From NCBI GenBank assembly GCA_034670405.1, contig JAXDDX010000035.1, positions 1,145,001-1,209,000 of the forward strand: a stretch of DNA of 64,000 bases. Reading direction: 5' to 3'. Position numbers and translations under genes: made by a program. The DNA is from Hoplostethus atlanticus. Lineage: Eukaryota; Chordata; Actinopteri; Trachichthyiformes; Trachichthyidae. The notes beneath the pieces were generated by a model that searched no databases, was not told the DNA's origin, and saw only the letters and a list, made by a program, of their open reading frames with translations. Positions 9,371 to 57,900 of the stretch are shown one piece after another. The number at the start of each line of letters is the position of its first letter. Position 1 is the first letter of the stretch.

Positions 9371-9524
9371 AAGAGGATTAGGGCCACATGTGAAAAATTG
9401 AATTGAGTTCTGAGTTTAAAGTCAGAATTCTGAGATTAAAGTGAGAATTCTGACTTTATTCTCAGAATTCTGACTTTAATCTCAGAACTCAAATAAAATT
9501 TTCGCATGTGGCCCTAATCCTCTT
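9371..9524. mobile_element. 154-bp foldback MITE in the putative tfap2c 3' UTR
   Basis: The left end AAGAGGATTAGGGCCACATG is matched by its reverse complement at the right end. The interior is also a near-perfect inverted repeat built from GAATTCTGA and TTAAAGT modules, so the whole unit folds on itself. No transposase is present and I see no clear target duplication. It is probably a short non-autonomous DNA transposon of unassigned superfamily. Confidence 0.75.
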
Positions 9525-16418: not shown

Positions 16419-18957
16419 GCTTTATATAAGGATATGGTTCTAAGCTGTAGATAAATGTTGCTCAAGCTAATCTTGCTCTGACTCAAAGTCTGCTTAAGGA
16501 AGACCTGATGACAAAACACAGCAGGAATAAGTTCTCATTCAAAACAATTCATGTCCCAACAAATTTCGCCACACCCCACCAAGAGCTGGTTCTGCCGAGT
16601 CAACCACAGCTTAAAGATCAACTCATAATTTCCTGTGAACGTGAACTAAAAAGAGCCACGAGTGCCATCGTAACCGGCCTAAAGATTATCCAAAGCTCGC
16701 CCTTCTCTCACAGTCAACACAGAGGTTGTAAGATTGCTCAACTTCCATGTCTTGTCAGCTAGCCTGCCATTTTTTGAAAGGGATCTTTTTTCCCCACCGG
16801 GCATCCATTCAAGCACCTTCAGCACTAGAATAGACTAAGGATCATAGCAAGCTTAGTTAAGTGCATCTCATGGCTATGAGGATTATCATTGTATGCAGTG
16901 CAAGTACAAATACAAGACTCCTCCTTTGCTGTGCTCTCTGATTGAATGTTCTGACATGCCACCTTACAAATAATTGTTATGACATTTCCAAGTATGTAGA
17001 TAATGGAAAATATGGTTCTTGCAGTAAGTTTCCAGCACCTGCCAGTAATTACTGTATCTTTATTTGATACTTGTTGCACAAAGGCCTTCACATGAACCCC
17101 AGGCAGCACTTTCCCCATTTCCCCCCCTTAAAATGAACAGAACTGCATTACAGTTGCAATAACTGTTATATTATTCATAAATATGAAATAAACTCACCCT
17201 TTTTGATGACTGTTTGATCTGCCATTATAATACTGTGGTCATCTACATGCTGATAAAAAAGAGAACAGAAGTAACAGTGAGCAATTATATGCTTTCTGTT
17301 TGCAGATGTATGATTTAAAAACACAAATCATAAGAACATAGCTAATTCTATAAATTACTGCAGGAAGCTTTGTGAGAGACAAAATATTATGCTTTGTGTA
17401 AAAAAAAAAAAGGCAACCGATCAGCAACCAAAGTCTTTCTCTTTCTCAAGCACACACACTCTCTCTCTACAAACACACACAATAATGAAAAATCACTACA
17501 ATATTCCTAGAATATTCCTATGGGGACTTATAGTGTGTCTGTGGTACTCGGTAGTGAGTATATAGCGACCTTTTAGTACTTAATGGTATATATTTTTTAT
17601 CTCCTATGGTAATAGTATAATATCCTTCTAAAATTTCTCATCGGATTACTTGAGTTCTCTTTAGTAAGGGCACACACACACACACACACACACACATTGC
17701 TTCAGTGACATTCAAACACGTTTGCTGAATGAGAATTTCAATCAAAGCCACTCACTTGAACGTCTTCTAATCCGTGGCCCATTTCATGCATCCCCATATT
17801 ATCACCAATGACCGACGACTCTATGCTGTGGACGTGGGGGGGCAGCAGTTCCGGTCGACGGAACCCTTCCCTCCTCACCCCCGACGACACTCCCTCCAGG
17901 CCCAGGATCTGACTCGCCAGTCCGCTCCTCCCGTGAGCTCCGAGCCCGTCCTGGCCCTGCCGACCGGGCCACGACTGCTGCTGGTTCGACGACGGAGACT
18001 GGTGTATGGAGTTGATGTTGAAAGGGTCGCTGAGGTGGGAATAGGGGTCACTGGACTGCGGGTATGAGATGGGCTGGTAGGGAGGTGGGAAGTACGGAGG
18101 CTGGAAGTCCGAGCTGGCCGAGTGTGAGAGAGAGGGAGACGGGCTGTAGAGGTGTTGACTGACCGCTGGCAGGTGAGGCAGCCTGGGGTTCCCATTGCTG
18201 TTGCCGTCGTGCCTTTCCTGAGGACAGAAGAGACATCGGCAGTTGATAAGGATGACAAGAAGACGTCAGGTTTGTCGTGGTGACATTTGTCCCCTTAAGA
18301 GAATCAAGTGTCAGCCATATGCCCTGTGATATACCCTGAAGAATGCGTTAATGGAGGGAACTGAATAAATTGTTTTATTTTCTATTTTAATTTCGGAAAT
18401 TAGAGTCCCTAGTCATTACGCATTTAAAGGAAGGCTACATTGTTACGGTGGAGGCTATGTACCTAAATTCACTGTAATCACATTGGAAGTGGGTTCAAAC
18501 ATGAGTCAAATTTAAAGCAATAAATCAGTCTAATTTTTGTGAAAGGAATGAGCGTAAAATGTCCAGTAATAAGACAATAAACTAATAATAATACAGTATT
18601 ATTATTCGCTGTTGGAATAATAATTATACAGGGGAAAATCTGGAAATTGCGCCTTGCTGGACTATTTCATCTCTTTTTCAAAAGTGACCTTTTTAGCTCC
18701 TCTTACTACCGCAACAAAGATCTGTCGGCTATAAGAATCCACAATATGTTGGATGTTTGATGACTCCCTATTTATTGCCTGCCCGTTTTTCGTTGGGCAT
18801 ATGAAAAAAAAATCCTTTCTTTATATGCTTGTCATGAATTTCAAATTGTTGTTCGATGTCACTCAAAGACACACACTTCTCTCCTTTTCGTGGCTCTGTC
18901 CAAACTCACCTCACAGTCATCCTCATACTTCACGTTGTCTGCTAGCTTCCACAACAT
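10551..18957 (-). CDS. tfap2c: Transcription factor AP-2 gamma (seven coding exons)
   Basis: This is a sequence-specific nuclear transcription factor of the AP-2 family, which acts in neural crest, epidermis and germ cells. Coding exons, in transcript order, are 18957-18910, 18217-17756, 17249-17198, 15192-14970, 13366-13248, 11224-11083 and 10845-10551. All have GT/AG borders and consistent phases, giving 446 residues (about 450 in mammals). The start [16 protein letters not shown] is typical of the family, and its VKYE is the SUMO consensus around K10. Exon 2 encodes the proline/glutamine-rich activation region with PPYFPPPY. Exons 4-7 encode the basic and helix-span-helix DNA-binding and dimerisation region ([40 protein letters not shown]). 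The C-terminus DKMEKHRK resembles TFAP2C more than TFAP2A, B or E. Linkage to rtf2 and gcnt7 supports that choice. The family is certain; the paralogue is about 85% sure. Confidence 0.93.
14072..14095. repeat. (TG)n microsatellite in tfap2c intron 4
   Basis: About 12 TG units. Shorter interrupted CA runs follow at about 14,265-14,330. Confidence 0.9.
16335..16418. repeat. (CTAT)n-(CTGT)n tetranucleotide repeat in tfap2c intron 3
   Basis: About 11 CTAT units pass directly into about 9 CTGT units, consistent with a transition spreading through one array. Confidence 0.95.
17495..17640. repeat. Dispersed AT-rich repeat, copy 1 (tfap2c intron 2)
   Basis: The order of short motifs (ATATTCCTA, GGGACTTATAGTGTGT, GTACTC.GTAGTGAGT, then TAGTACTTAATGG) recurs in the same orientation at 21,560-21,765. 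This is an old interspersed repeat of unknown class with no coding sequence. Confidence 0.6.
17671..17696. repeat. (CA)n microsatellite
   Basis: Thirteen CA units, within 60 bp of the tfap2c exon 2 donor site. Confidence 0.9.
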
Positions 18958-28400: not shown

Positions 28401-31400
28401 GCCAAAATGAAAACAAAAAAACACAAACCATGCTCATAGAAAACAAACGTATAAATATTCCCTTATAGAAACCATGCACAAACGCGCGCAAAAAATAAAT
28501 AAACAAAGCATACAACATCATTCTTTAGAGAATAAAACATATATTCCACCCTAGGACCAAGGACCTGTAGGACCTGTACCCCTCACCTTGTTCCTGCGGG
28601 TCAACCAAATGGCCAGCTTGGCCTGACCAAAAATTCTGCAACACACTCACTGCTTTTTTTTTCCCGCAAAGAACACGAGGCCCAAGAACAAAACTCAAGC
28701 TTTGAATGAACCAGCTACTGTGTTACTGCACATTCAAAGCACTATTCAAATGAAGAAGGATTTATGTTGGTTGCTTGGTTTTGTTTATGAAAAGGCTAAA
28801 CACATTTGTTATAACATTAAGCCAGATGCGTCACCCAGGCATGACACACATGTCCAACACCTACCTTTTACATCTGATGGTTTGGACACAGCTTCAGCAA
28901 CCTTGCTCTTCTTTGATTTCTAAAAAAAAAGGGACAAAAAAGGTTTAAAAAACAAGCACATACCAAGTCACTGATGAGAAATGTGCCATACAAACAACCA
29001 ATCACTTAATCATCATGGAACAAAACCCACCTTGGCTTTGGCCTTGGCCCGCTTCTCTTCCATCTTCTCTTTCAGCTTCTCAACTTCCTCTTTGGTGCCA
29101 TTGAGCACAATGACATCTTCATATCGGAACGCGTCCCCACACTAAAGCAAAGACAAGACGACATCCAGTTCAGAGCTATTAACCTGCACCTTGAAAAGAG
29201 TACAAAAAGAATCCAACTACAATCCAGTGTCAAAGCAATACAAATTCAGGCGTAATGGGTCTGGATGAGCAAGTGAACACTTAATGTTTGCTACTACACT
29301 GTAAAAAAATATTTACTCAGTATTATTGCAACATTTTTCTGCCAAAATAATTGTAAGTATAAATGTGATTGTTGTAAAATTGTTTAACTGTTAGTAAAAA
29401 AAAAAAAGTTGGTTTGAATTGACTATTGAATTAAAATAGGCAACAAAATGAAATTATGTTGATTTAATTTTAATAAGTGCAACTACTATTGTTAAAACTA
29501 ATCAATGATGATAAAAACATATAACTTAAACTAAACACCACCAGGAAATAATTTCAATTATTCAACAAGGCATTTGCTCACAAACATACACCACAGCCAA
29601 CATGTTCTAGCCAGGATCTTTGTATACATCAGCAAACAGACTGGGGATGTACACTAGTACAACACTCCTGAGTGACCGTGCTGTCCACACAACTTTAATT
29701 GTGTCCTTTGCTTGGTCAGTGGAATTTTTCTCAGGCAAAAAAGATCATCTCATCAAGTAATAAATCAACCAAGGAAACAAGGAGGGGGTGTCTGTTTCAG
29801 TTTATACTCCTACTTTGACTAGTAAAACAGTGATTTGCTTACTAGGGCTGATGGAAAACTTTCCACATTGTTTGTGAGGCATCTGTGGCAGACAATAGTA
29901 AAATTAGACAAGGAATTTTCCTACTCAAATAATTGACCTAAATGATTTTTCAGTTTTCCGGTTGGGGTTGGCCTCCGTCAGGGCTGCGCCTTATCACCAA
30001 TCCTGTTTGTGATCTTCATGGACAGGATATCGAGGCGTAGCCATGTGGGGAGAGGGTTGCAGTACGGTGGGCTAGGGATCACATCACTGCTTTTTGCAGA
30101 TGATGTGGTCCTGATGGCACCATCGGTCTGTGACCTCCAGCACTCACTGGATAGGTTCGCAGCTGAGTGCGAAGCGGCTGGGATGAGGATCAGCACCTCC
30201 AAGTCGGAGGCCATGGTTCTCAGCAGGAAACCGGTGGACTGCCCACTCCGGGTAGGGAATGAGTCCTTAACCCAAGTGAAGGAGTTTAAGTATCTGGGGG
30301 TCTTGTTCACGAGTGAGGGGACTATAGAGCGGGAGATTGGCCGGAGAATCGGAGCAGCAGGAGCGGTTTTGAGGTTACTCTACCGCACTGTCGTGACGAA
30401 GAGAGAGCTGAGCCAGAAGGCGAAGCTCTCGATCTACCGGTCAATCTTTGTCCCGACCCTAACCTATGGTCATGAGGGATGGGTCATGACCGAAAGAACG
30501 AGATCCAGGATACAAGCGGCTGAAATGAGTTTCCTCAGGAGGGTGGCTGGCGTCTCCCTTAGAGATAAGGTGAGAAGTTCAGTCATCCGGGAGAGACTCA
30601 GAGTAGAGCCGCTGCTCCTTTGCGTCGAAAGGAGTCAGTTGAGGTGGTTCGGGCATCTGGTCAGGATGCCTGCTCGGGCGCCTCCCTAGAGAGGTGTTCC
30701 AGGCATGTCCAACGGGGAGGAGGCCCCGGGGCAGACCAAGGACCAGGTGGCGTGATTACATCTACGCATTGGCCTTGGAACGTCTTGGGATCCCCAGGGC
30801 AGAGCTGGCGGATGTGGCCAGGGAAAGGGAAGTCTGGGGCTCTCTGCTGGAACTGTTGCCTCCGCGACCCGACCCCGGATAAGCGGATGAAGATGAAGAT
30901 GAAGAAGATGAAGATTTTTCAGTGTAATAACAATGGATACTATGGATACTTACTTCTTTTAAGTATGCCAGTTATGACAGATTCATATCCACATCACTCA
31001 TCTGTCAATATAACGTTTAAAAACAATTGACTTTATTTACATGAGGGCTGACGGCCATATTTGATTTACTCGTCTGTTGATGAGCAAGGACCATTTTCTC
31101 ATCAAATCGGTCATTTTTTCCTGAACAAAATAGCATTTCTAAGAAAAATGACTGTGTCAAACCAATATAGACATAGTTTCTAGTGCGCACATGCCTCATG
31201 CCAGCCTGTAGTGGATCTACATAAAAATGATAGGGTATGAGCAATAAGATAAATAATCTAGTTGTCCTATTTTGGGCAAGTTGTTTTTAATCTATTATAG
31301 TATCTTAGCAAAAATTTAGCCATCTGTGTCATACAATACAAGATAAGAGATAATCTATTCTGAGAAAATGGGTGTTTTGGACTTCCTCATAGATAGATGA

Positions 31401-35200: not shown

Positions 35201-38200
35201 TCGCCGTGCATCTCTGTAACAGCTGCTTACACCAATTTTCCCACACCAATTCATTTTGGCAGCTTGTTCCTATTCTTTTTTTTGTTCCTATGCTCCTAAC
35301 TAGTTTATAGTAACTGGATTGTTCTAGTCTCAATGGGTTTTTTTTGCCATGTTTCACAAAGAAGATTCAGAGACCATGTGTTGCCATTTCCCGTAATTAT
35401 GCTCAGTGCCTCAGATAATGCAGTTCTCAAAGAGACTGAATTTGACTAAACCACACATACTAAACCACACATCTTGAGCTGAAAACTGTCTTCAACAATT
35501 AGTGCCTAACCTACATATTTAACCTAATTTAGCATCCCTCATGGGTCCGGGAACCTTCTGCTAACTGTTAAAAAGACACTCCACCATTTTTCAACCTTAT
35601 CTCCATCAATCAGTCCTCACTAGTACATGCTATTAGATGGTACTGTTTTTGTCTACTCGTTCTGTGTCTCGGGGAAAAGCGGTTTGAAACAACAACAAAA
35701 AAAATAAAAAATCGGCCCAAAATCTATTTTCAAACTCATGTAAACTACAGGCTCTCTTTTCCTGGATTCACGTCTCCACCTCGAGGGGCGGTAAGCAGAT
35801 GATAGCATTAGCAGCAGAAATTACTATAATTGTAATCTGTAGCTAGCCAATTTGCTAACTTACCTGCTCTATCGGTTACATTTCTCTGGCGGCCGAGTAA
35901 CCACTCCACTCGGTTCACCTCCATTGGTGCTTCGTCCGGGAAATATGGTGAAAATAGTGCCAGGTTTTAATTTTCTAATGAGCATCTTCTATGGGGATAT
36001 GGTGAATGCTCGGTCCCCCCCTGTCCTTCTGTCCCGCAACTATTACAGTTGGGCACCACACACCAAGATGGCATATTCCAAAATGTGAAAATACGAGAAA
36101 AAAGTTTGTCACAAAAGTTAGCCCACTAATATAGTCCCCGCCACGGTAGTTGTTCCCCATCGAGAAGCAGACCTAAGTAGACACGCACAACACCACCAGC
36201 TGAGTGTGTGTGTGTGGGGGGGGCTAAGGGGCAGTGTCTTGGTGTGGGGATTGGTTCTCAGAACCCAGTATTGTAGGATCTGTTGGAGAAGCTCTATAAG
36301 CAGAAAAATAGCATTTTCTTTTTCAATATTGGGTTTAGTTGACTGATTTTTGCTTCTAATCATCAAGACAACACATTCCGTTGATATAACATCCACATGA
36401 ATGATGGTGGTGTGTTCCTTTAAGCAATCTAGATGTCTTTCCTGCAGGAGGTTAAACTGTGGCAGTGTTGTCTGCATACAGAGAAGCGGGACTATTATGC
36501 TCCAGCTCGAAGGGACCAAGTGCAGCTTCCTGGTGTGCCTGGGGATCAGTATTGTGGTCTGTTCAGTTATTTACCTGAGGGCCAGGATGCCAACAGAGCC
36601 CCTGCACCAGGTAGGGTCTCTCAGTTGCAGGCCCTTCTCCACTAAATGTAGAGCGTTTCTGTCCAGTGCTGAGGATGGAGTAGAATGGCACCGCCGTGAC
36701 TGTCAGGTATGTTTTTTTTAGTGTTTCCTCGTTGCATTCATGTTTTTTTGTATAGTACAGTGGAGCCTCATTTATTAGAACCCATTGGGAAAGGAGGTCA
36801 CTCAGGAGAACGAAGTACTCACTGAATACTCACGTACTGAAATGTATTAAAATTCTAGATCAATTTTTTTTAAATAAATAAATAAAAAATGCAAGTTGAA
36901 CAAATCAACAAATGACCATTATGCATCATCGACAGAATATGTTTTCACATTTCCACATATTATGTTCATTATGACTGTTGATTCAGAAGGCTAGGGTTCA
37001 AATAAACAAGGTTCTACTGTAGTGACCTACAAAACACAAATATGTCTAAATGAAGAAACAATGGCCAATTAATCAAACCAATCAATCATTCTACCAAATC
37101 AATTAGCTAACGTGTTTGAGACTGACCTTGATATGAAGTACTACACAAAAAGGTGTGAGCAAAGAAAGTGGCTGAAAACCAAACGTGAAATCAATAGAAG
37201 GGCCACTTCTTGTTGGATCAAGGTAATTTCTTTTGGTACTATTTTTGATGCTGTAGTCATGGAAACGAGCACAGTGCATGAGACACAGATGTTTGGAATG
37301 TGGAGCATGGCTGCCATCAGAATGTCATGCGAAATGATGCCATGGCCATAGTAACACATGGTGTTCCTTGAGTCTCCTGCAATGAACCAATGCTGATATC
37401 CATGACAACATTATCTTAAGGTGTGCCAGTCAAATGACCATTCAAGAGTGCTAATTTGATTTAGGTATGGCCATTCTAATCATTCTAGTTCTATGGTGTA
37501 GCGAGTTTTTTTTCTTTGTCACCATCAGGTGGAAACGTATATTCTGAATCATCATCTGAACTGCTCCCATTTGACCAGCGACCTCCACTTCATAACAAGA
37601 CCTCTGAGTGACGAGGAGGAGAGCTACCCTTTAGCCTTTATTTTGACTGTTCACAAGGAGCTGGACCTTCTTCTACGCTTACTGAGGGCAATTTACACCC
37701 CACAGAATGTCTACTGCATTCATGTGGATGCCAAGTCTACGTGGAAATACCGAGAGGCCGTACAGAAGCTGGTCAGCTGCCTCCCCAATGCCTTCCTCTC
37801 CAGCCGCAGCGAGACAGTGGCATATGCTGGGTTTTCCCGCCTCCAGGCAGATGTGAACTGCATGAAGGACCTAGCAAGGTCCAAGGTAGGATGGAGGAAG
37901 GTGGTGAATCTGTGTGGACAGGACTTTCCTGTCAAGAGCAACCTGGAGCTGGTGCGTTACATGCAGAGCAAAGAGTGGAGGGACAGGAACATGACCCCTG
38001 GGATCAAGCAGCCTGTGGCCATGAGTCACAGGACACAGCTCCAGCACAGGGAGATCATGGGGTCATATGTACTCCCAAAGGGGTGGGGAATGAAGAAGGG
38101 TCCTCCTCCACACAGTCTGCAAGTGTATTTTGGAACAGCCTACTATGCTCTAACGAGGGACTTCGTAAACTTTGTCCTTGAGAGCCAAGTGGCCCATGAC

Positions 38201-41200
38201 CTATTGGAGTGGTCCAAAGACACCTTCAGTCCAGATGAGCACTACTGGGTGACACTCAATCACATCAAAGGTAGACTATTAGACTATTAGATAGATTGCA
38301 TACACTGACTGGTGACTATTTCCTACTAGTGCGGACTTGACCTTTTTGCTAGCATTTGGAACATAAATCCTAGTATATGGGATGTATTAATCAACTAGAT
38401 GATCTCCACATATAGATTATCTCCTTAAAAAAGAAGAGTACTAAAATACAGTCAAAGGGACTGTCTGTACTCACCTATAACATAGGTAATGATTGTGTTT
38501 TGGTATGATTACTAGTGTTAGCCTTAAAGCAGCAAAAAATACATGTTTTGCGAGTTAAAAACTTTGTAGCCGCACGTGACCGCTACACAGATGCAATCAG
38601 AGCTTCTTGACCCATCAACCAAGTCGCTCGCTGTATTACAGCGATTGTTACACTGAAGCTATAAATCACCTTTACAGATTCATGTGAGAAATGTCCTGTT
38701 TTTTTCCTGGTTTGCTTACAATTGTGTTTGGCAAGAGGATCTCTATGTGCTTTTGCATTACAGGAAAAAAGAGAAATGTCTAATATTAGTTTAGGTAACA
38801 CACAAATGATTCTTTCTGTTTGCTTATGTGGTCCAAGAAGCTCCAGGGAGCCACATAGACGGAGGTTGGGCTGGAGAGATCCGCGCAATCAAATGGAGGG
38901 ATCAAGAGGGACCAGTACACAATGGTTGCAAAGGTACTGTATAATATAATATGTAATAGTCATTGTCATATGAATGTCATTACAGCAGCTATAATCTGTT
39001 ATATCATTTATAACATACACTGTTTGCCTCATGTTATGTGGCCTTTTGTAGTTCAAGATGTGATTTTTACACATCAAACACACTACTATAATACGCAAAC
39101 TAGTATGTTCTAAACCTTACCTCATCCCTTGTCTCTGCCCTACACCAGAAAGATTGTCTGCTCCTTACGCTTTGTCTTGGTTATGTTTGGCTCTTTGGCT
39201 CCAGACAGGCTTACAGACTGATTACCGACTAAGGCAACTTAAGATTTACCCAACAGACGATGATAGGAGGATTGACATTTATCTGATCTGGGGTCCTCTC
39301 TCGTGAGTTTAATATCTCTTTTAAATGACCTTTTACAGAACATTTAAAAGACAGATTACACTCATGAGGGAAGACAAAACAAATCATATATGACTGAAAA
39401 AACAAAACATGTTTGTTGTCTTAGGAAAGAACAAGCTGTCTGGATCCAGTCTTAATCGGCCTAAATCGCACTGGGGCTGCAATACAGAGGAGCGTTCTAT
39501 CCCCTGCATTTGAGATTGCTTTGATTCGCCCTCTTTGCCCACATGAGATTCTGGTGTTGGGTATGGACACTGGTGGGAAATCTCCACCAACAAGAGGTTT
39601 CCAAAATACAAACCATCTCCTAAACAGGAGTGAGCGCTCCGTAAAGAGAAAGACTCACCAACATAAAAATGAGCGGTTTACTGACTGATATTACACAATA
39701 TCTGATGGAATTCCCTATATCTTCATGAAGTCACAGTACACCATGTTAAAAGTGCCCTCTGACTGGATATCATGTAGTACTCTGTTCACAGGTAGATGGA
39801 TGAAAAAATGTTCTTCATAAATGCATCCTGATGGAGGGGTTCAATTTTTTTCTGTCTGTCAAATGCAATGGCCAGGTTAGCTGCTGTACACACGGTCTGC
39901 TGTCCTTATTTGTTGTTATTAATTGCAAATTGTCAGGCAAAAGTGCGATTCATCAAGGGATTTTTGTGTGTAACAACAGAATTGGGGGTCTGCACATTTC
40001 CTGAAACTGACTTTGGATTTTATTACTTCTCTCTTACTGAATTTCTTGAGAACAAATTCAAGAGTGACTAATGTCTAATATATTCCTGCATGGTCAAAAC
40101 TGTTTCATTTCCCAGGCCGTTACGTAAGAGACATCTGTATCTATGGGGCGGAAGACCTGCCGTGGATCATCAACAGCAACAGTATGTTTGCCAACAAGTT
40201 CGAGAGCAATACCTTCCCTGAGGCGTTGGACTGTCTGGAGCAGTGGCACAGGGACAAGGTGCTGAGGCAGGCAACTGTGCCCATAGAGCCATCGTGGCTG
40301 CTGGCTACACCGGGCAACACCGGGCCACACAGCAACAGCAGCTATTTCAACAACAGTGCTGAAGCCTGAAATCACTGTCGGTTTCAACACCAAAAGACAT
40401 GATTATTTGCACTTTTTCATAGCTGTGAATGTAGAAAATGCAACCAGGTAAAGACCAAACTGAGAATGATATGATGATACACCAAACTGTGCTGGACTGC
40501 TATTGTTAATTGAAGTGATTTGTCTATCTTTGAAACTGTAAGGAGGCTGTTCTTTTTACTAATCAGAGGATGGTTGGTGTCATATACGTCACTTTGGAAT
40601 GTTGCTAGAATTTCTCAGACTTGAGTAATGCTTTAGTCGAGTCTCAAAAGGTCATCTTTGAGATTTTGAAAACTACATGGTTAGGTGAGTAAGGAGAGCC
40701 ACAAAGCTGGAACGGTGACAGTGAGGCTATATGTAGGCTTCCGATGTTTTCATTCCTGTTTTAATGAGGGAATAAATCTTATTTCAGTTTGCTGAGATGA
40801 CAATGAAAAGATAAACATTGGGTTCTGCAGAGTATTTGCTGGTTCTTGGCTCAATTCCAAACTTGCTGGCACAACCACAAGAAAATAATGTAAAATGCTG
40901 CTTGATGGTCAATTCAGACAGAGGAATGAAATTTGTTTGGCTGAATAAGACTGGGCTACTTAATCCTACAAACCACCTGGGAAACTAAGTGAAGAACTGT
41001 GGTGAAAAAAAAAGGTTGAATGGAGCACCATGAACAAAAGGTGCACAACAAATTCAGGTTGGACACGAACCATGGTTATAAATACAAAATTCGATCAGCA
41101 GCAGAAAAACATCCTGCTACCCAAGAAGGGGATATCAGTATCTATGCCCTAACAACAATCTAACATTTACATTCCTATGAAATCTGAGCTGATTACAAAG

Positions 41201-44200: not shown

Positions 44201-45947
44201 AACTCTAATTCAGGTTAGATTAATTCTGTCTTAAATCCAACATGTTACATATATCATATAAAGATCTCTGCCTAGCACCTCTATGGTGTCTCATTCTACA
44301 GTATTTACTTTACAGACTGTTGCAAATGTATGAGTCAAATAGAAAATATAAGCATTGCATCTGTATAGAAACTAACATGACAAGAAATGACAGGCAAGCT
44401 GCCCAGAGCTAACAGGAACAGTCCTAGTCCTGTTAACCTCATTTTTTTGACAACCATTTATAGTATTAGTCTGCATGCTGTGCTGTAGATACTTCAAATA
44501 GCATAAATGTTATGCTTTGTATTTCACTTAAAAAAACATTTGCTGGGTAGCTAGCAATATTTATTCCCCTAGTGCACACTTTCTGTTTATATTTCAAACC
44601 CGTCCATCGTGGCACTGACCAATGAGAGTGGAGGGTGAGGGCAGTGTCCACAAGAAACAGAGGTATATCATTCTCTTCTGCAATGAAAGACTGCCTACAG
44701 GAACACACTGACTACAGGAACTACCAGCCCTCTGTTGGGCATTAGAAAGGATGCAGTAGGTTTTGAACCCATGCGTATGGGAGCATAAGTACATTACATT
44801 ACACTTCAGACTTTTAACTGTTTTGGTTGCTCTTATCCAACAACCTATACTAAGTGCAAGAGTCAGATATCAGCCAGTAGTAGTTAATATGGGACGCCTC
44901 CTGTCAAAATTTGATGGATGACCTTTGACCCCATTTGATTGATTGACAGCTTGTCAAAGTTGACAGTTTTGATTGACAGCTTGTCAGTATTTGACAGGTT
45001 TGATGGATGACCTATTGACCTCCTTTTGATTGACAGCCTGTCAGTAATTTGTCAGCTTTGAATGATGCCCTGTGTGATGTGTCATGTTGTGACCTTTTAA
45101 TTATTTAATGATCCTAATGATGAGGTATTTCCGGGTGTGTGGGCGGAGGCGTCATTCATTTGTTGTTTTGATCCTGAACGGGGGTATTGACCACCCGTGG
45201 GGCATTGGGGGTTGTGTGACATCTGGATGGCTATGGGAAAGTGTTTTTGTTTTATACTCACTAACTGACCACATGGCAAACAAAGAACAATGGGGAAATC
45301 TGAGACCTTTTATTTATTTAATGATCCTAATGAGGAGGTATTCCCGAGGGTGTGGGTCGGAGGTGTCATTCATTTGTTGTTTTGATCCTGAACGGGGGTA
45401 TTGACCAACCGTGGTGCATAGGGGGTTGTGGGAACACCTGGAGGGCTATGGAATGTGTTTTAGTTTTATACTCAGTAGCTGACTGTTGTCAAACAAGGGG
45501 CAATGGGGATCTGTGTGTGACATCTGGAGTGCTATGGGAAAGTGTTTTTGTTTTATACTCATTAACTGACCACTTGTCAAACAATGGACAATGGGGAGCT
45601 GTATTTGTTTTATAATCCTTAAGGAAGTCTATTGATCTATGGCAAATGCGGTTCTTTGGGGTGTTTAACCCTGATTTGTTCTTTACTAAATAATGAAATT
45701 GTCCCTATGACTATCAATCTTTATATCGCTGTTGATATACGTATTGGGTATAGGAAGGCTATTTGGCCATGTTATAATATGACCAAATATATTAGGACAT
45801 CTAAATTAGACTAATATATAGAGCAGGGCTATATTTCAGCTGGACACAACCAACAACATAAGAATCTAATGTGAAAAGATAGCTACATTAAACAAGGTTT
45901 TGGTGTTTTATAATAATGATTTTGTCACATATGTGCGCGCACACACA

Positions 45948-45999
<52 letters not shown>

Positions 46000-48900
46000 C
46001 CGTCGATACGGCCGGCCATCAGAGCGAGTGTCTGATGATACCTTAGGACGTCCGGGGGGGTCTAAGTCTGGATTGTGCGCAGGGCTGTGGGCGAGACATC
46101 AATCATTTGGTTTTACGATAGTAATTGAGGATTTTCTTTTTGATTTGGTGAAGATTAGGGGGGAAAAGCAACACATTTGAGGATCTTACAGAGGCCTCTA
46201 CAAGCCACGGTAAGTCCGTTGTATTCTATGCAGGTGTCTTATTAGATTGAGTTGCATTACCACGTATTTAAAACTATGTATCACCTATACATGATTGTCT
46301 ATGTTTTGTATCTATTTCTCTCTAGAATCACAAAATATATTAGATCAGACCAGGAACAGAAAATCTGATATCAGTGTGGGTACCGGTCGGACACGTATGG
46401 ACAAAGAAAATAAACACCCTAACAAAAGTAGGTTTTTATTCTACATTCGGGCGCATATTTTTAAAACCAGGATTCTTTCTAATGAATTGAACTTTCTAAT
46501 GAGTTGTACGTTTCATTTTTACTCCTGCATTTCTTAGGTCTTCTAGGAAAAAACAGCGCACCACTTAAAGAACGGTTTCCTCAAAACACCAGTAAGTATT
46601 TGATATAAATTAAAATTGAAATGAAAAAATAAACGGCAAATCTCATATTGTGTTCTTTCTTTTGTTTTTACTGAACATCAAGGCGAGGCGTTAAACAAGC
46701 TTGAACAATATGTGAATAACGTTTCAAAGTCGTCTGTTGAGGGAGAAGCTGAGACACAGGAGCCAAAGGCAAAACGCACAAGATCTGAAAACGGTATAGT
46801 ATTAACATCTGATACATCCTATATTTAAAACTATATTATCCCTTTTATAATAATCACCGACTAATGGACTATACCATCTAATGTGTCTTGTTTTTAGTAA
46901 GCGGTGAGGAGGAGACGAGCGCATCCGCGGGGATAGTTTTAAATCTTCAGTCGGACAGCTGGACTGATGAACTCTGGGATCGCTTTGACTTTGGGCTGAC
47001 ACAGATGTGCAGCGAAGAAAATTCCGTCCAAGACCCGGAAAACAGCGTCATACCGACACCGTCGTCATCTGCAAGGGTGAGCGATCGAGATGTCATTGTG
47101 TTGATCAAATCCGTGATTCGCAGCATAGAGGCATTATCCAAATCTAATTTAAAAAATAATGATGATTTTATGAGACAGCTCAACGAGTTTTCCCGAAAAT
47201 TTGATAGCATAGAACAAGCCATTAAGAGACAAAACTCGCTGATACGCGCATCACACACAGAGCTTCTTGCTGAGATAAGAACTCTTCGACAAAGTAGGAG
47301 ATTTTAGTAGTGCATATACCAACAGCGTGTCATCAGTGCTTTTTATGGGTTTATGTTTTGTTGGAGAGTACTTTAAGTGCAAATGTTTTTTTTTCTTTTT
47401 GCTGTTGTAAACCATGAAAAGATCGTACAAATCAGTGAACGGTCGTAGAAATGCAGAGAGAAGCCAGTATGACTTATCCACTAATGATGATGATGATGGT
47501 GAGGAGCAAGACTGTGGTCTTCAGGCTAGAAACCGGTTTGAGGATGACAGTGTAGATGATGACTTGCCGCAAGACTTTGATGAATTAGACACAGCCACAC
47601 AATGTAGCTTGTTGATAAAGTTGGTGCAGTATCGGACTAAAAAGTATAGTGAGATGTTTGATACACCCATCCTTTACAGCAAAGTACATGGAACAGGGCT
47701 TGATTTTGATGATGAGGAAGAGGAGGACGATGAGCAGCTATCAGCTGAGAGCATGGACTATTGTACAGTACACACCCCGAATCAGTCAGGACATGTTTTT
47801 GAGCATAATAGCTTATCCGGCCAAACACCGAATGTGGCTCAAGAGATGACAGGGGGGAGTGGACCTTTTCAAACACGAAATATCCCACGGTTTAATGCTG
47901 TGGAAGTTAGACAGCCGATAGATTTGAGAAGCATATCTCTTGATAATTTAGAAGTTCCAAATCTGATGAGACACAAGCTAACGGATGTGATAACGCACTG
48001 TACAGAGAATGCTCCTGCAGGCAGTCTGTTAAATGTAGTGTTGCGTGGTCCCTCTCTCGCTAGCGATGTTCAAACAGTTTTAAAATCTGACGATGACTAT
48101 AATGCAGACTTGTTTTTAGAGCAGATAGCACAGGTGATGCAGAGTAATGACACATCCATGACAGATGACGAATTAGAATTTGTCGTTACAGTCGCCCAGA
48201 ACAAAAGTGGTGGAGGATATCGTTTGAAATTAGGGGCCATACCTTATGATGAGATAATACGTAAGAAAAGACCTTGTCTTTACAGCCCTCAAAACATAGG
48301 TAACAATCTGTGCTTCTCCACGTGTATTGCTCACCATCTAAGCTCAATGCGTGCGATACAAGCGAACGATATCATTGCAGAAATAATGTATGAAGAGTTA
48401 GGGATTGTGGCTAGTACAAATGCCCGTGAGGAGATGGCTTATGCAGAGAAAATGCACAGAGAGTTGGGGCATACACCTGATCGAAAGATTGGCTTTTCTG
48501 ATGTCTCTAGATTCGAGAGGCATCTGAATGTGAAAATTCTAATATTCCACCACGTCCAATGAAGCAAAAAGCTGGAGTTGTATCAAACGAGCGACAAGCC
48601 CCACCCAGACACTATATGGTTGTATCTACACAATGAACACTACCACCTTATTGTGAATAAGACACGATTTTTCGGGGCAAAGTATCTCTGCGAATACTGT
48701 TACAAACCATGCAATTCAGTACTGGATCACAAATGTAAATTCCACTGTAACGTATGTCTAACAGGCTGTTACACACACCCAGGTCCAACGATAAAATGTG
48801 ACCAGTGTAGCCGTATATGTAGATCAGAGCACTGTTATAAAACACATTGCCAATTTTCACAAACACATGGATTTACTCCGTGTAAACGTTCAAAATATTG

Positions 48901-51900
48901 CGACTTGTGCGGTAGATTATATGTGACCTGCTCTCACAGAATCAGTCACATTGACCCCAAAAGACATTTTGGGGTTTTCATATTACTTGAAAGAGGAGAA
49001 TTTAGGCTTTCCAATGAGACCAAAACTCCTACAAAAAATGAGAAAGTTATGTGGCATTATACAACGAGAGACACAAAAGTGTGGTTTTGAGAAAAAGGCC
49101 TTTAAAAAACCTTTCCATTATGACTCTGAACATTCCATTTCTGGGGGGCTGCCGCTTTGACATCTCACAAACAAATGCTGCTTGAGTGATTATTTTAAAT
49201 AACAGATATAACATTTAGGCATCTATGTAATGAGGAGAAATTGCTCTTTAAGGTTATATTACACACAGTACACTTACACTATTTATCCACTATTAATGAA
49301 TCTTTCAAAAGCACCTTGAAGACGTTGTGAAAAATCTGTGACTCCCCTCCCCAACCCCCCACAATTATGGTTACACATAATTCAATTGTGTAAAAAGAAA
49401 GACAAACATACTGATATACATTAAAGTGTTTATGTAAGCACATTCTTTATTTGTAAATATATGCTTAATGTATACAGTAGCCTATACAGTGTAGAAGATT
49501 TATACCAATCTATAGATTGGTATAAATGCCAAGTGCCAAAATATTAAACACATCAGATCCGGATGTCCCACCATAATCAATTTCAGATCCGGACGTCCCA
49601 CCAGAATAAACTTTATGCATTGTGTATACGCTGCTTACCCAAACTCTATCAAATCTCAAATCTATTGCACGCCCAACCGTCCTGGTAGGGGGATCCCTCT
49701 CTGAGTAGCTCTGAGTTTCCTTGTCCTCTGTTGAGGGTCTAAGGCTGGGGGATGTCGTGTACTAACCATTTATTGTTTTTACACGTTGGGCGCTGTGAAG
49801 CCCTTAGAGACTGGAACGGTGATTAAGGGCTATACAAATAAATGTGATTTGATTTTATTTAAACCCCAAAGTAATATTGCAAGAAAAGATATAACCATAT
49901 TACTGTTGGATATTAAACATTTCTAAACACATCCTCTGAACTTTTGACCCTCGAATATAGCTTACTTGCATTCTATTAATATTTTGATGTTACTGTGCAG
50001 ATGAGCGAAAGTCTTGCCATCACAGGACGCTGTGGTGAGCAGACTCAGACAGGTACAGGGATTCTCAGAATTGCGGGGCTAAAACCCCCGCCTGCACGAT
50101 TGTTCCATATCCTGTTCTGAAGAATCAGTTATGAAAGTTGTGTGTTCAACTCTATATAACCCCTGTGCAAGTGTGAATAAACTCAGAACCTTGCTGACAC
50201 GCAAATTGCTTGTTGTTGTCACTTTGTTCTCCGAGCGCTCGTGCTTGACAACCTTCGATCACGGGACAGAGACACAGGACGCAGAGCCAGTGCAGAGCCT
50301 CAAGAGTTTCCAACAATTACACATATCACTAATTAAATCCTTAAATTATTCAATAATTCATCTAGACATTCATCATCTCTGCATATGTGATCACCATCAA
50401 TAAAGTAAGAGGTCCTCTGGTGCATCCTTTCTTTTTGCTGCTTCCTTTGGAACAAGCCGTTTCTTTGGATCAGTTCATAGTGCTGCTGACAGGATCATGT
50501 GTTTCTCACCTAGGAAACAAAAAAACATCTTAGGCCTACATTCAATTTGTGACAATTAAAATAAATTAACAGAACTAATTTTGTCATTTCAGTGTGAGAC
50601 CACTCATCTGTAGTTAAATACAACTACAGGGTCCTGTTGACCAGCTAGCTAGCTAGAACTACTCAAAACATTACCTACAGTGTTCATTATTACTGAGAAC
50701 AAGGTTTAAATAAGATAAGATAAACACACTTGTGTTTACTAATGTTGGCTAGCTCTATGGGATACGTGGAAAAGTGCTTACCAGCAGTCACATCTCATCG
50801 CTCTCGTTTTTTCACCATAGAGAAGAGGATGTAGCAAGGCTTTCCCTGATGACATTTGCAGCCACACTTGAAGCTACGAGCCTTCTCGATATCCCCTCCA
50901 GATCCGTAGCTCACATATTCATCCCATTCATCCGACTCAAGGACGGCAGATATTGGGTCTGTTAAAAAAAGTGGCTCCATGTCAACATCTTCATCGTTGT
51001 CGGTGTCTGAAATGGGCCTGTCAGAGTCCGAAGTGTCGCCGGAGGTTTCACTGTTGTTGTCCGTTCCCGTGTCGTCCGAGCCGCTCTCCTCAGCCGTCTC
51101 TCGGTCAGATCTCGGTGCCAAAAAATAGTCGTCAATAAACTCTCGCCACCGATCGCCGGAATCCACAGACAACACTGGATTGCCGAGCGATTTCTTCTTC
51201 TTTCCGAGACGCCATTGAAAGTCTTGATGATTACGATACTAGCTTGCTAACTTGACAACCAACAGGTGCGGATGCAGCTGGCTAGTCGCTAAATGCCGCT
51301 GCCGCGATCAACTTCGCCAAATACCATATCTTGCTTTTATGCTTCAAAGTTAAATTTCCACTCCAAAATAGGAAATAATTCATACAGATTATCAAAGCCA
51401 AGATTTTGTTTTATTAAAATTAGTCAAAATACCAAAATGGTCAAAAATAGACTTTTGACATTAAAAGGCGTTTCTACGTAAATCAGCCATTGCGACTTCC
51501 GACTGATTCTGTGAGAGCACGTCACATATATTGTACCGAAAAACCCCAAAAAGGCCGCTGACGGTAGCGATATACCGCTCCACACATGCTCAGAGAGAAA
51601 GTGTAGACACTGCGACGCACCCGTCGTCGACGATCTTCACACATGCTACATCCAGCCTATCCCAGAGGAACGTCTAAAAACAAAATACATCTTCTATGAT
51701 TTTGAGACTCGCTATCATGATGGGAGACACGAGGCAAATTTTGCAGCTGCAATAACATTTGATGACAAGCCGTGGTGGGCCACCGGTCTCAATTGTGTCC
51801 ATAAGTTTGTCAGACAGTATAGATGTGAACGGTACAAAAACTACACATTTGTAGCACACAATGCCTCAGGATTCGACAACTACATTATGATGGAGTATTT

Positions 51901-54900
51901 TACAAGACAGGGCATTACACCTAAACTGGTCATGCGTGGAAGTAGGGTGATTCTGATGTACGACGATGCATTCAAACAGCGTTGGGTAGATTCTTTTAGC
52001 TTTCTCCCTATGCGATTGTCAAAAACACCCGCAGCGCTTGGTTTTGAGGATGTAGAAAAGGGGTATTTTCCCCACACGTTTAATACAAGAGCGAATGAAT
52101 CCTACATAGGCCCTTACCCAGACCCGTCCTATTATGGATACGAGAAGATGTCAGAGGGTGACAAAGACACATTCATGACCTGGTATAACACCGTCCGTCA
52201 TGAGATGTTTGATTTCCAGAAAGAACTTGAGCGCTATGGTGTCAACGATGTTGTTGTTTTACGAAAGGCATGTATGGTCTTTCGTGAAACAATCATTCGT
52301 TGTTCAGGTATAGATCCCCTCAGTCACACAACCCTGGCATCATGCTGTATGGCCATCTACAAAACAAAATTTTTACCGGAAGACACGTTAGCTCTCACAT
52401 ACGAGGGAGCATATGTCGCACAGCACAAGACCTATTCAAATGTCTCCATCCAGTGGCTTGAGTTTTTAGCAAACCATCACGGTATAGAGATTCAACACGC
52501 TCTCAATGCTGGAGAAAAGCAGTTTGGTCCTTTCTTTACAGACGGATATGACCCAAACACGCATACGGCCTACGAATTTGCAGGCTGTTTTTATCACGGA
52601 TGTGATCTTTGCTACAATCCGGCCCATAAAAATCCTGTCACATGGATCGAATTTGGTCACATGAAAAGAGAGTTTAGTGATAAAATCTCAGTCCTCAAAA
52701 AAGACTATGGTCTCTGCGTGGTAGTTATCTGGCAATGTGAATGGGAGAAACAGAAAAAGACAGACGGTGTTGTACAGAGGTTTATGGAAACCTACAAAGC
52801 CCCCACAAGGCTTAACCCGCGAGATGCTCTATTTGGCGGTCGAACAAATGCCTATAAACTACTACACAACACACAACCCCATGAAAAAATCAGGTACTAC
52901 GACTTCACATCTCTCTACCCCACAGTGCAGTCTCGCAAGCCATATCCTCTAGGACATCCACAGATTATCTTTAGAGATTTTGAGTCTATCGATAAGTATT
53001 TTGGTTTTGTCAAGTGTTCTGTACTACCCCCAAGAGGTCTGTATCACCCTGTGCTCCCATACAGATGTCATGGAAAATTGATGTTCCCGCTGTGTCAGAC
53101 ATGTGCGCAGGAGCTTAACCAGACATCTGAATGCTGGCACAGTAGTGAAGAGAGAACGATCTCAGGCACATGGGTGTCATTCGAGCTGCAAAAAGCTCTT
53201 GAAAAAGGATACAAAATAACGACCATTGATGAGGTATGGCATTTCCCCCAACAGTCAGACACTCTGTTTAAAGAATATGTGAAAACCTTTTTAAAGTGTA
53301 AGCAAGAGGCTTCAGGATACCCCAGCCATATAGACAATGTGCAGGCACAACAGCAGTACGTAAAGGATTACTACGACAGAGAGGGCATACAACTAGATCC
53401 TCAAAAAATCTGTGTTAATAAAGCGGTCAGAAGCTGTAACAAGCTCATTTTGAACAGCTTGTGGGGACGTTTTTCTCTACGTACGGACCTAGCTACCACC
53501 GAACTAGTAACTGACTCTGAACGATTCGTACAGTTCATGTTTAGCGACATATATGATGTACGTCAGTTTTGCTTCATCTCTGACACTGTGGCTCTGGTGC
53601 AGTGGCGCTACAAAACTAGCGAAGCCTCTAGAGCTAGAGATGTTAATGTGTTTGTAGGGGCAATGACCACCGCCCATGCTAGACTCATGCTGTACGAGCT
53701 TTTAGACAAATTACAAGAGAGGGTCTTATACTGTGACACCGATAGTATAATCTTTGTGTCACGTGATGGGGAATGGATTCCACCATTGGGGTCGTATTTG
53801 GGAGATTTGACAGATGAGATCAATGACGGGGAAATCTGTGGCTCCGAGCATGAAGATTATATTACCGATTACGTGTCATCAGGTCCTAAATGCTACGCCT
53901 ACTGCACACGTCAAAACAGAGTCGTGGTAAAATGTAAGGGTGTCACTCTAAACGCTAAAAACGCAGCAGTTGTCACGCGCCAGACGCTATGCAGACTGGT
54001 TGAAAACTTTGTGGCTAATCAGGCTATAGGGGAAGTAATAACTACAGAGATAGAGACGATTCAGCGAGATAAAAGAAAGCTACAGCTTAAAAACGCTACA
54101 GTAGTGAAACGGCTGCAGATGGTTTACAACAAGCGTAGGGCTTTTCCTGATTATACCACACTACCATATGGATACTAGAGTCATGTCTAGAGAGGCAGAG
54201 AGGTTTGATCATCGGCTACAGCATCCATTCAGTTTGGTTGTGGCAGGTCCTTCAAATAGTGGGAAAACATACTTTGTCAAGACTGTTGTTGAAAATGCAG
54301 AGAAACTCATTTCTGACAAGATTGACAATATTGTTTACATTTATTCATGTTGGCAGCCTCTGTACGATAATCTGTTGAAAATAAGGGACATAAACTTTGT
54401 GGAAGGCATACCAGCGTCTCTCTGCGACGACTCTCTCCTACCACCGCAAAAAAATAATTTGCTCATTATTGATGACTTGATGAATGATGCTAGCGGTAAT
54501 TTGGAAGTCCAGAATGTTTTTACAAAGTATGTACACCATAGAAACCTCAGCTGTATGTATCTAGTGCAGCACTTATTTATTCAGGGGAAATCCAGTAGGA
54601 CAATTAGCTTAAATACCAACTATCTTGTCTTATTTAAAAATCCTAGAGACAAATATCAGATCTGTCTACTGGCCAGACAAATGTTTCCCTATAAGACAAA
54701 GTATTTCTTAGAGGCATTTAATGACGCAACAAGCATCCCATACGGATACCTTCTTGTTGACTTTAAAGCCAAGACTTCTGATTCTCTAAGACTCAGAACG
54801 GATTTGTTGTCAGACCACCCGGTTGTCTACGTGCCAAAAAACAAGTGACCCGTCGAAAATGTCGTCATGCATTCATAGAAACAGAGACGGGCTAAAGTTA

Positions 54901-57900
54901 TTATATAAGGCTCCGCCTGCTATGAGGAAAGTTATTCTGACTACTGCCAGCGATGATTTTATCAACACACTATGCGAAATAGCCTTAAATGTGCTACAAG
55001 GGGCTATACCTTTAACAGAGACGCAGTATCAACGGTTGAAAAAACAAAAGAACGGACTCAGGCTGCTGGCCGATAAGAAGGTTCAAATTTTAAGAAAGAA
55101 GAGGTTGATTAAGCAGACTGGAGGCGGTTTTCTTTTGCCGTTGTTAGGTGCCGCATTACCCTTTATCACCAGTCTTATTTCAAGAGGTTGATGATATTGT
55201 CGACAGCATGGAACATACCCAAAAAATGTATCTGGTACCACAACATCAGCTCGATGCAATAAGACAACCCAGTGCTCGCGAATCTATTAGACAGACTGCC
55301 GAAAATGAACTGGATAAGGATATACTGAATGTCTTGGGGCTACCAGACACTGACTTGCATGAAAAAGCAAAGAAATATGCTTGTGTTCTACAGCGTTTCT
55401 TGACCATGGTTAGACAGGGTGACCAAGAAAAAGGAGGTCAATAGGTCATCCATCAAACCTGTCAAATACTGACAAGCTGTCAATCAAAACTGTCAACTTT
55501 GACAAGCTGTCAATCAATCAAATGGGGTCAAAGGTCATCCATCAAACTTTTTGACAGGAGGCGTCCCATATTAACTACTGCCAGTAGTCCCTAGTAATGT
55601 TGCATATACCAGTAAATGAAAAAGTACTGCGGTACAAGAGTTTGGAAGACGGCACTAGTCGACTAGTGCAACTAGACATTGCAGTAGTCGTGTGTGTGAC
55701 ATTGCGGGAAAAAACCCGGACTGAGTTTGCAATATGAGCCGCAGCAATCGTGTAGTGAGTCGAGAGCGGACCACTTTCTCGTTTTGTTCAGAGACTAGAC
55801 TTGAGACGTCTCAACGTCTAAACTCATTGACAAAGACGAGGTGAAATAAAAGTGAAATATGAGAAAGACGAGCCCCTAAACACAGCAGCACCGCTGTGCA
55901 AGCACTATTTAAAGTATCTCGCAAAGGGAGGCAACGCGTCAAACCTGGTCAAACATCTGTAGGAAAAACATCCACACCATTTCAAGGAATTTTCAACTTT
56001 TCAAAGACCGACAGGTGATTGTTGACTAGCTAACTCCCCTGTTATGTCCATGAAAGAAATACAGAGTGATCGAAAACGGTGTCCAGGTTTGAAATAAAGC
56101 ACAATTATGGCATTTGACAGTGTTTCCCTTTTTTTAGGAAAAGTATTGCGTATCGAAATTCATGACTGTATCGAAACAAAAATTTGGGTATCGTGAAAAC
56201 ACGATAAAATAAAGCAAATAAAGTTGAATTGAATTGAATTACCTTAAGGTCAGGCCAACAGACTATGGATCTGGAACTATGTCAACCCCAAACTGCATTA
56301 ATATCAAGGCTGGTTATTGACAGTGGATCTCTGTATGTGAACCAACCAAGCCAACAGGCATCAAAGTTAATCATTCACCACTGAGAACAAATATCTAAGA
56401 TAAATGGACAACACACCAGAGCACCAGAAGCACCAGAGCATTAAGAAGCAGAAAACCCTCCTCCCTGCCAAACACATCTCCAAAGATGGGCCAAAGATGG
56501 AGAATGAGCATGAACTGAGCTGCGGTAGGGTGACTGGGAGAGAGGGGGTGGATGATGATGATGATGATGTATTGCTCACCTTGTGACAGATTTCTGTCTT
56601 GACCTCCTTCAGGGCCCGGTCAGAGAAGACACAGCCACAACTCGGCAGGTAACAGAACCTGAGAATAGAAACATCACATAAAAACCCAAGCAAACTTTTT
56701 TTTCATCCTGGGATACAAATTTAACCTAGATTGTTTTGTGTGTACAACACTGTACAGTACACACAAGGAAAAGACAACACCTATGGCTCTGTATTCATGT
56801 GTGGTGCATTTTCTAGCATGGTTTTGATCAAAATAATGCCCTTAAAGTTTAATGCTGATGAGTGGTGGTTCCATGATTTCAATAATGACCTGCAATACAT
56901 ATCCATTTATGAACAGAATTGAATGTCATAAAAGCAGAAAAGCATCATCAACATTGGAAAATTGAACTTAAGGACACAACAGTCAGCTAGCAAACCATGT
57001 TATCGTAAATCAAGAGATCTTCTGCATTAGGATGTATGTGGCATTAGGCTATCCGGTGTGCCCAGTGCTGATCTTTATTCTGTATGAAGAACCTTCCTTT
57101 ATTCTTTCTTTCTGTTTATTCTACACTAATTTCTTCAGTTCAATAACAGCTTTTTTGAAATACTGTAGGGTTAAGGATGCATTCTTCACTTGTTACCTGT
57201 GTTTGCCGTTCATCTCCAGGCCCACCACAGGGCAAATGAACATGGCACAGTTCATATCCTCATAGCGGTCTCCCTTGGTGTTCCTCCTCTCTCCCTCCCA
57301 TTCTGGGTTATCAGTCAAGTTCAGCTCTGTGATATCCTAGGAGTAGAGGAATTAACAAAATAAAATGCATGGGCACGCATGCACACATACACACGCAAGC
57401 ATGCTCCCCTGTGCGTGTGCATACACAGCATTAACTATGTTTTAGCATTAGTGATACGCAAAACATCTTTTCAAAGAAGACCTGAAGCAATTAGTGTGTG
57501 TTTTGGGTGATTTCAAGAGCATCTGTTCCCACAAGTAAACAACAGTTTCAGTTCTAGCATACCTTCATCCCACGGATGTGTACTGCAACCTCAGTGTTGG
57601 GTCTCTCAGCGGTCTTGTCCAAAAGGTACTCGATGACTGCATCTTTGTTATAAAGCCTGAGATGTTGAAAACATGGTTCACTGTTTTGATAATGTCACAG
57701 CTTTGTTTTAATACCTTATCGGTTTGTAAGGTACATCCAACTGAGGTTCCCTCAGTGTCTTTTATCATTATTAAGTCATCCTGTTTGCATATGTGGTACT
57801 AGCCTTGATTTTTGCCTAACTGGTGATGAACAGAAAGAGGACTCTCACCTTCCCAGTTCACAGGTAACGATGGGGCGTCTGAGTTTCTCCTGGCTCAGAG

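What the first reader, a model, noticed from the sequence alone, without database searches (positions are those of the whole stretch)
44879..55579. A complete but reduced Polinton-like virus element with intact termini
Seen directly: inverted repeats of about 150 bp ending AG...CT, a 6-bp GCCAGT duplication, a protein-primed polymerase, a packaging-type ATPase and a pX-like protein. Known: Polintons/Mavericks and adintoviruses carry these plus an integrase, protease and capsid genes, and make 6-bp duplications. Here the latter genes are all absent although both ends are present. This implies mobilisation in trans and may represent a distinct short, non-autonomous lineage.
Basis: partly seen in the sequence, partly recalled or inferred. 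Interest (0 to 1): 0.9.

Follow-up and report, generated by a model that had tools for sequence, protein, structure and literature searches.

The report
Deleted Maverick virus that still moved
A fish chromosome carries a virus-like mobile element (a Maverick) that has lost its whole integration-and-capsid half, yet the same deleted form sits at a second place in the genome, so fuller relatives most likely moved it.

Summary
Window 44879-55579 has terminal inverted repeats (149/151 nt, no substitution, one 2-nt gap), AGTAGT...ACTACT ends and a 6-bp GCCAGT duplication. It has PolB, an A32-like ATPase and a PM protein; integrase, capsid and protease were sought and not found. It is a vertebrate Maverick (Polinton/adintovirus), not a separate PLV group. 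It is not intact: PolB has an in-frame stop and a 2,603-bp insert with its own inverted ends (net element about 8.1 kb), PZ is cut at residue 96 of 267, and the right repeat is a 151-nt stub of a roughly 380-bp one. Longer relatives in the same genome carry integrase-chromodomain, penton and capsid genes (15.1- and 15.75-kb copies with 6-bp duplications, capsid gene damaged there); the protease was read in others. The window copy lost that module (about 6.4-6.6 kb) across a 7-nt microhomology, AAAAGGA. The identical junction occurs exactly once more in 633 Mb (contig C176, different right flank), so the deletion derivative was most likely mobilised after it formed, with integrase supplied in trans. 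The 'short lineage' is tiny: two loci, one seen only at a contig edge. A new variant of a known kind, moderately interesting.

The parts
44873..44878 (.). target-site duplication GCCAGT, left copy
44879..45027 (+). left TIR, the part paired with the right TIR (149 nt); begins AGTAGT
   Evidence: One end of C559 matches the window's left end over 381 bp (44875-45255, 99%), so the family's TIR is longer
45088..45627 (+). left subterminal direct repeats (copies 57-301 nt apart)
   Evidence: families D1-D4
46888..47307 (+). accessory ORF, 139 aa, no Pfam match; matched in copy C456
47414..48922 (+). PolB N-terminal part, with an in-frame stop at 48560-48562
   Evidence: matched by fish PolB proteins of 1111-1334 aa; one stop in the aligned stretch
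48923..51525 (.). 2,603-bp insert inside PolB, with its own 25-nt terminal inverted repeats (GTGACSTGCTCTCACAGAATCAGTC) and a possible ATAT duplication; carries a 126-aa ORF on the minus strand (50795-51175)
   Evidence: copy C559 reads uninterrupted at this point
51526..54178 (+). PolB exonuclease/polymerase part (PF03175); frame open from 51515
54168..54848 (+). A32-like packaging ATPase, 226 aa
54823..55191 (+).
   Evidence: gene order as in PMC8097293 section 7
55148..55444 (+). PZ gene truncated by the deletion: residues 1-96 of the 267-aa PZ of C559, then reads into the right TIR
55429..55435 (+). deletion junction, 7-nt microhomology AAAAGGA shared by PZ and the inner TIR
55429..55579 (-). 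right TIR stub (151 nt), ends ACTACT
55580..55585 (.). target-site duplication GCCAGT, right copy

Best explanation
This is a non-autonomous deletion derivative of an endogenous vertebrate Maverick (Polinton/adintovirus). A genome with the usual two converging modules lost module 2 (integrase, penton, PW, major capsid, protease), the end of PZ and the inner part of the right TIR, about 6.4-6.6 kb in all. The loss was a single join across a 7-nt microhomology. Because both outer TIRs survived, the shortened molecule could still be recognised by the integrase (and perhaps replicated and packaged) of fuller relatives in the same genome, and it entered at least two sites. Shown: structure, missing genes, junction, microhomology, longer relatives carrying the missing genes, a second locus with the identical junction. 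Inferred: that the deletion arose during extrachromosomal replication or repair, that integrase came in trans, and that the PolB insert and stop came later.
For: TIRs and 6-bp TSD. Module 1 only. Longer family members: 35 of 144 ATPase rows are near full length (at least 216 of 226 aa, at least 96% identity) and 19 of 110 MCP rows are full length without stops. Integrase pieces are present in 10 of 10 right-arm pieces, all chosen next to earlier MCP hits, so this is no unbiased sample. rve (below its cut-off), chromodomain and adenain-type protease domains in C559. Window module-1 DNA is 97.2-99.3% identical to six pieces of five other copies. The junction pattern (32 nt, up to 3 mismatches) has exactly 2 places in the genome, C35 and C176, both exact, 0 for the reversed control. 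In the 101-bp search (40 of 183 candidates scored) 38 of 40 hits stop at the breakpoint. The C176 right flank does not match the window's right flank.
Against: Only the last 483 bp of the C176 copy are in the assembly; its left end and its own duplication were not found, and a search for another contig with its right flank did not complete. Nearer the contig edge that copy has several more differences from the window. Two loci are a small sample. The window's left and right TIRs differ by a small variant (right has an extra AG), so the history may include recombination between subfamilies. No empty site for the window insertion is present in the assembly. No expression or extrachromosomal evidence was available.
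Confidence: 0.78

Rival explanations
1. The deletion happened in place in one integrated full-length copy, and the second copy received the same junction by gene conversion or duplication, not by integration of a shortened genome.
For: TSDs would be kept in either case; dozens of near-identical copies give much material for conversion. The left end of the C176 copy is not seen.
Against: The C176 right flank differs at once outside the TIR, and BLAST of its first 3 kb against the window shows only the element and simple-sequence matches, so no duplication took the right flank along. Conversion would have to import a 6.4-kb deletion precisely.
Confidence: 0.15
2. It is an old, distinct short lineage of Polinton-like elements that never had module 2, with several copies in fish.
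For: Both ends are present and the gene set is coherent.
Against: PZ is cut in mid-gene exactly where the TIR begins, and 38 of 40 scored hits to the left side of the junction do not continue into the TIR. It is 97-99% identical to pieces of other copies, including C297 and C535, which carry module-2 genes. Only 2 sites have the junction.
Confidence: 0.03
3. It is simply a decaying remnant: an ordinary endogenous virus with a random deletion, with no mobility after the deletion.
For: Deletions occur elsewhere in this family: C405 lost most of the protease through the integrase at other breakpoints, C704 lost integrase and penton. The window PolB is broken twice.
Against: A second locus with the same junction.
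Confidence: 0.12

Closest known systems
Vertebrate Mavericks (Barreat and Katzourakis 2021, PMC8097293; abstract start, passages, and section 7 in full, seen)
   Same: (AGT)2//(ACT)2 ends, 6-bp TSD, TIR size range, order ppolb-atp-pm-pz on one strand; C559 carries int-mcp-pw-Mcp-pro on the other strand
   Different: Published intact elements are 12.7-24.6 kb with eight conserved genes (seven in Xenopus tropicalis); this copy is 10.7 kb (about 8.1 kb without the insert) and has only module 1, with PolB and PZ damaged
Adintoviruses (definition in PMC11071296, passages seen)
   Same: PolB 54% identical, over 79% of the query, to PolB-C of Pimephales minnow adintovirus; relatives here have integrase with chromodomain and capsid genes
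   Different: No hexon or integrase in this copy
Non-autonomous deletion derivatives of DNA transposons (recalled general knowledge)
   Same: Shared ends with gene-carrying relatives, internal loss, same junction at more than one locus
   Different: Keeps the replication half and loses the integration/virion half; the family is self-synthesising and virus-like, not cut-and-paste
Defective interfering or satellite genomes of protein-primed linear DNA viruses (recalled)
   Same: Both termini kept, capsid genes lost, short repeat at the join
   Different: No evidence here for packaging or interference

Membership tests
Vertebrate Maverick/Polinton | (AGT)2//(ACT)2 end motif and 6-bp TSD | tested here: met
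   definition
Vertebrate Maverick/Polinton | Terminal inverted repeats | tested here: met
Vertebrate Maverick/Polinton | Module 1: ppolb, atp, pm, pz | tested here: met
   all four present, but PolB is interrupted and PZ truncated; pm and pz named by gene order
Vertebrate Maverick/Polinton | Module 2: int, mcp, pw, Mcp, pro | tested here: not met
   not found in this copy; present in relatives. It is therefore filed as a derivative of the family, not as an intact member
Adintovirus | PolB with N-terminal OTU-like domain | tested here: inconclusive
   N part aligns with the N part of fish PolBs; no OTU match in Pfam
Adintovirus | Hexon, and integrase with C-terminal chromodomain | tested here: not met
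   not found in the window copy; rve and Chromo domains and MCP present in C559
Non-autonomous mobile derivative | Ends shared with gene-carrying relatives in the same genome | tested here: met
   40 of 248 candidates scored, TIR at 95-100%; 6-bp TSD read by eye from printed flanks for 7 of 8 two-ended elements (window, the others; C559 did not match)
Non-autonomous mobile derivative | Same internal deletion at more than one integration site | tested here: met
   two sites; only the right flank is known for the second
Defective interfering / satellite genome | Extrachromosomal replication and packaging by a helper | not testable with these tools
   needs reads of extrachromosomal or particle-protected DNA

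The most novel reading that the evidence does not exclude
The short form is a satellite of its own family. A shortened genome born by template switching between two co-replicating Maverick subfamilies (left TIR of one haplotype, right TIR of another) was copied, and perhaps packaged, by fuller relatives, then integrated at new sites. It would be a natural record of complementation in trans, and so of helper-dependent genomes, in a virus group whose particles had not been observed (as stated in the abstract of PMC8097293).
Probability: 0.2. Interest if true: 0.65.

Novelty: new variant of a known kind. Interest (0 to 1): 0.45.

Why it matters
Mavericks are held to have evolved mainly by forming particles and reinfecting, because the virion genes of cyprinid-fish Mavericks are under purifying selection (PMC8097293 discussion, passage seen). 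A copy without integrase or capsid genes that nevertheless occupies two loci suggests that termini alone can be enough when helpers are present. A shared deletion junction is a simple genomic marker with which that can be tested in other genomes. Six phrases (non-autonomous, nonautonomous or defective, each with polinton or maverick) found 0 papers in the searched library. Wider term searches gave listings; passages of PMC6431247, PMC9004415 and PMC11071308 showed no such element. Subscription journals and repeat databases were not searched, so prior description there cannot be excluded.

Tried and rejected
Intron for the 2.6-kb gap in PolB: rejected, because copy C559 reads straight through that point and the gap has its own inverted repeats and a possible 4-bp duplication. 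Module 2 hidden in the ORF-poor stretches 45.6-46.9 or 49.1-51.5 kb: not found by tblastn. C559 as a clean parent: its two outer flanks do not share a 6-bp duplication, so C297 and C535 (matching duplications) serve as check; C559 serves to read the genes. Contig counts overstate insertions: several contigs share the same 8-nt outer flank and may be alternative haplotypes (C704/C553, C405/C835, C173/C439, C297/C536, C167/C562); this was not tested further, and C704 and C553 differ in how much MCP they keep. Empty site of the window insertion: none. Left end of the C176 copy by its expected duplication: none; 3 hits, each with 2 mismatches in the flank part. TIR 20-mer in IMG/VR: none. Solved structures by sequence for the PolB part: none. 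Promoter/terminator scan: uninformative. The other inverted repeats listed inside the insert were taken as chance.

Full report
What is there. The window lies at C35:1145001-1209000 of a 632.8-Mb genome held in 1161 contigs. The host is inferred to be a teleost: the named proteins closest to its PolB are from Acanthochromis and Sarotherodon, 65% and 63%. The species was not determined. Between 44879 and 55579 (10,701 bp) lies an element with inverted ends. The outer 149/151 nt have 149 identities, no mismatch and one 2-nt gap, and it is flanked by GCCAGT on both sides. It begins AGTAGT and ends ACTACT, the commonest end motif of vertebrate Mavericks, which also make 6-bp duplications (PMC8097293: section 7 read whole; passages).

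Genes. On the plus strand lie a 139-aa ORF, a PolB gene in pieces, an A32-like ATPase, a PM protein and the start of a PZ protein. The order ppolb-atp-pm-pz is module 1 of the published architecture. PolB is doubly broken. There is one in-frame stop in the N part, and 2,603 bp (48923-51525) interrupt it. The insert has inverted termini (pair I2) and an apparent ATAT duplication. Copy C559 reads uninterrupted at that point, so the insert is a later passenger, not an intron. Without it the element is about 8.1 kb. The C-terminal PolB part is open and matches PF03175 at E=5e-42. It is 54% identical, over 79% of the query, to the PolB-C of Pimephales minnow adintovirus. Sampled PolB-N stretches of other copies are partly damaged too: C559 changes frame, C297 has one stop, C535 has none in the part read.

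What is missing, and where it went. I read the right arm of one longer copy (C559) as two separate pieces. It carries, on the strand opposite to the ATPase, a 331-aa ORF, an integrase in two open frames (rve E=1.6e-6, below the curated cut-off; chromodomain E=8.9e-10), a penton-like protein, a PW-like protein, a 435-aa major capsid protein and an adenain-type protease (Peptidase_C5 E=5.3e-7), plus a 267-aa PZ on the ATPase strand. The names penton, PW and MCP rest on gene order and recall, and Pfam matched none of the three. The MCP has 814 relatives at E<=1e-10, of which the 120 best were listed, the named ones mostly from fish, reptiles and amphibians. Apart from PZ, none of these proteins matches the 64-kb window better than E=0.03. 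PZ matches at 99% but only for residues 1-96.

The junction. The window follows C559's PZ up to GACCAAGAAAAAGGA and then continues as the inner TIR, GGTCAATAGG. The seven bases AAAAGGA occur in both. The deletion removed about 6.40 kb relative to C559 and 6.58 kb relative to C297 (positions), including the inner part of the right TIR. One end of C559 matches the window's left end over 381 bp at 99%, so the family's TIR is longer than the 151-nt stub left on the right. This looks like microhomology-mediated joining or a template switch (inference).

Does the short form move? In a 101-bp search over the junction, 2 of 40 scored hits (183 candidates) span it: the window and C176:274-374. The other 38 stop at query base 66, the breakpoint. 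A pattern search of 32 nt with up to 3 mismatches over the genome finds exactly those two, both exact, with no hit for the reversed control. Outside the right TIR, C176 reads CACGCCCCCTC where the window reads GCCAGTAGTCC. BLAST of the first 3 kb of C176 against the window found only the element and simple-sequence matches. In the last 270 or so columns of the alignment I count 2 differences between the copies. Nearer the contig edge there are more, many of them single-base gaps, which may be edge errors. The same deletion therefore sits at two different loci, and integration of an already shortened genome is the simplest account. As it has no integrase, that function must have come in trans (inference). 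The weak point is that C176 starts inside the element, so its left end and duplication are unseen. Gene conversion is not excluded.

Helpers in the same genome. The TIR search scored 40 of 248 candidates: 40 places at 95-100% identity, 38 of them over all 154 nt and two (the window's right end and C176) over 149, plus 20 rows for partial or internal matches. ATPase: 144 match rows, 35 of them covering at least 216 of 226 residues at 96% or more, three of these with a stop. MCP: 110 rows, 19 full length and without stops (97 of 197 candidates scored). For 31 of the 35 ATPase places an MCP row, whole or partial, lies nearby. The four without are C35 (the window), C704, C405 and C556; C704 does hold an MCP remnant and C556 was not examined. 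In ten right-arm pieces, picked next to MCP hits and so not an unbiased sample, integrase was found in 10 of 10, and both integrase pieces end to end without stops in 6 of 10 (C535, C120, C359, C346, C333, C699). The two copies with verified 6-bp duplications and the best size, C297 and C535, have integrase and penton and MCP in two stretches with one stop each; their protease was not read. Contigs sharing outer flanks may be alternative haplotypes, so the numbers are not insertion counts. I make no statement on which copy, if any, is active.

Other forms. Of eight elements with both ends compared, seven have a 6-bp duplication: C35, C297, C535, C456, C216, C173 and C691 (flanks printed, compared by eye). 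C559 does not. Other deletions exist with other breakpoints: C405 lost most of the protease through the integrase and an inner part of PZ, and C704 lost integrase and penton. C216 (10.57 kb) shows no family gene and a single ORF of 90 aa or more (141 aa) in the 6.0 kb of interior pieces read. C456 (16.1 kb) has PolB-N split by more than 10 kb and no ATPase or MCP row. Thus reduced forms arise repeatedly; the window form is the only one for which I have evidence of a second locus, and I did not test the others for that.

Ends of different haplotype. The window's left TIR lacks an AG that its right TIR has. C176's right TIR has it too, and the window's right TIR is identical to C704's over the shared 151 nt. 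The short form may therefore be a join between two subfamilies. However, other verified elements with unequal ends exist (C173, C456, C691), so this is only suggestive. The lack of substitutions between the two TIRs suggests a young insertion; I give no date, because the rate would be recalled and the sample is 149 sites.

Judgement. What it works like: a non-autonomous, helper-dependent mobile element. What it is: a deletion derivative of a vertebrate Maverick, not an intact member, since module 2 was tested and not found.

Noticed in passing
window 48923-51525: Passenger insert with 25-nt inverted termini, possible ATAT duplication and a 126-aa ORF on the minus strand; no Pfam match. Its other copies were not counted.
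   Followed up: partly
L056-L058 (C216:8341-18911): A 10.57-kb element with the same TIRs and a GAGGCT duplication but no family genes in the pieces read: another kind of non-autonomous form.
   Followed up: partly
L031 (C405) and L062 (C704): Internal deletions in the same family at other breakpoints, both removing the integrase.
   Followed up: partly
L059 and L061 (C456:40012-56091): PolB N part split by over 10 kb of other DNA inside an element with an AACCAG duplication.
   Followed up: no
L009, L011 and L027 (C559): The two outer flanks of the 17.1-kb element do not share a 6-bp duplication, and its piece 17300-17800, where PolB would be expected, has no match in the window: other DNA is inserted, or the contig is rearranged.
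   Followed up: no
window 29946-30689: Open frame that looks like a non-LTR reverse transcriptase fragment (by eye, no search).
   Followed up: no
window 37502-38290: Open frame resembling a beta-1,6-N-acetylglucosaminyltransferase exon (by eye, no search).
   Followed up: no
window 9367-9528: Directly abutting 81-nt inverted repeat, 90% complementary.
   Followed up: no
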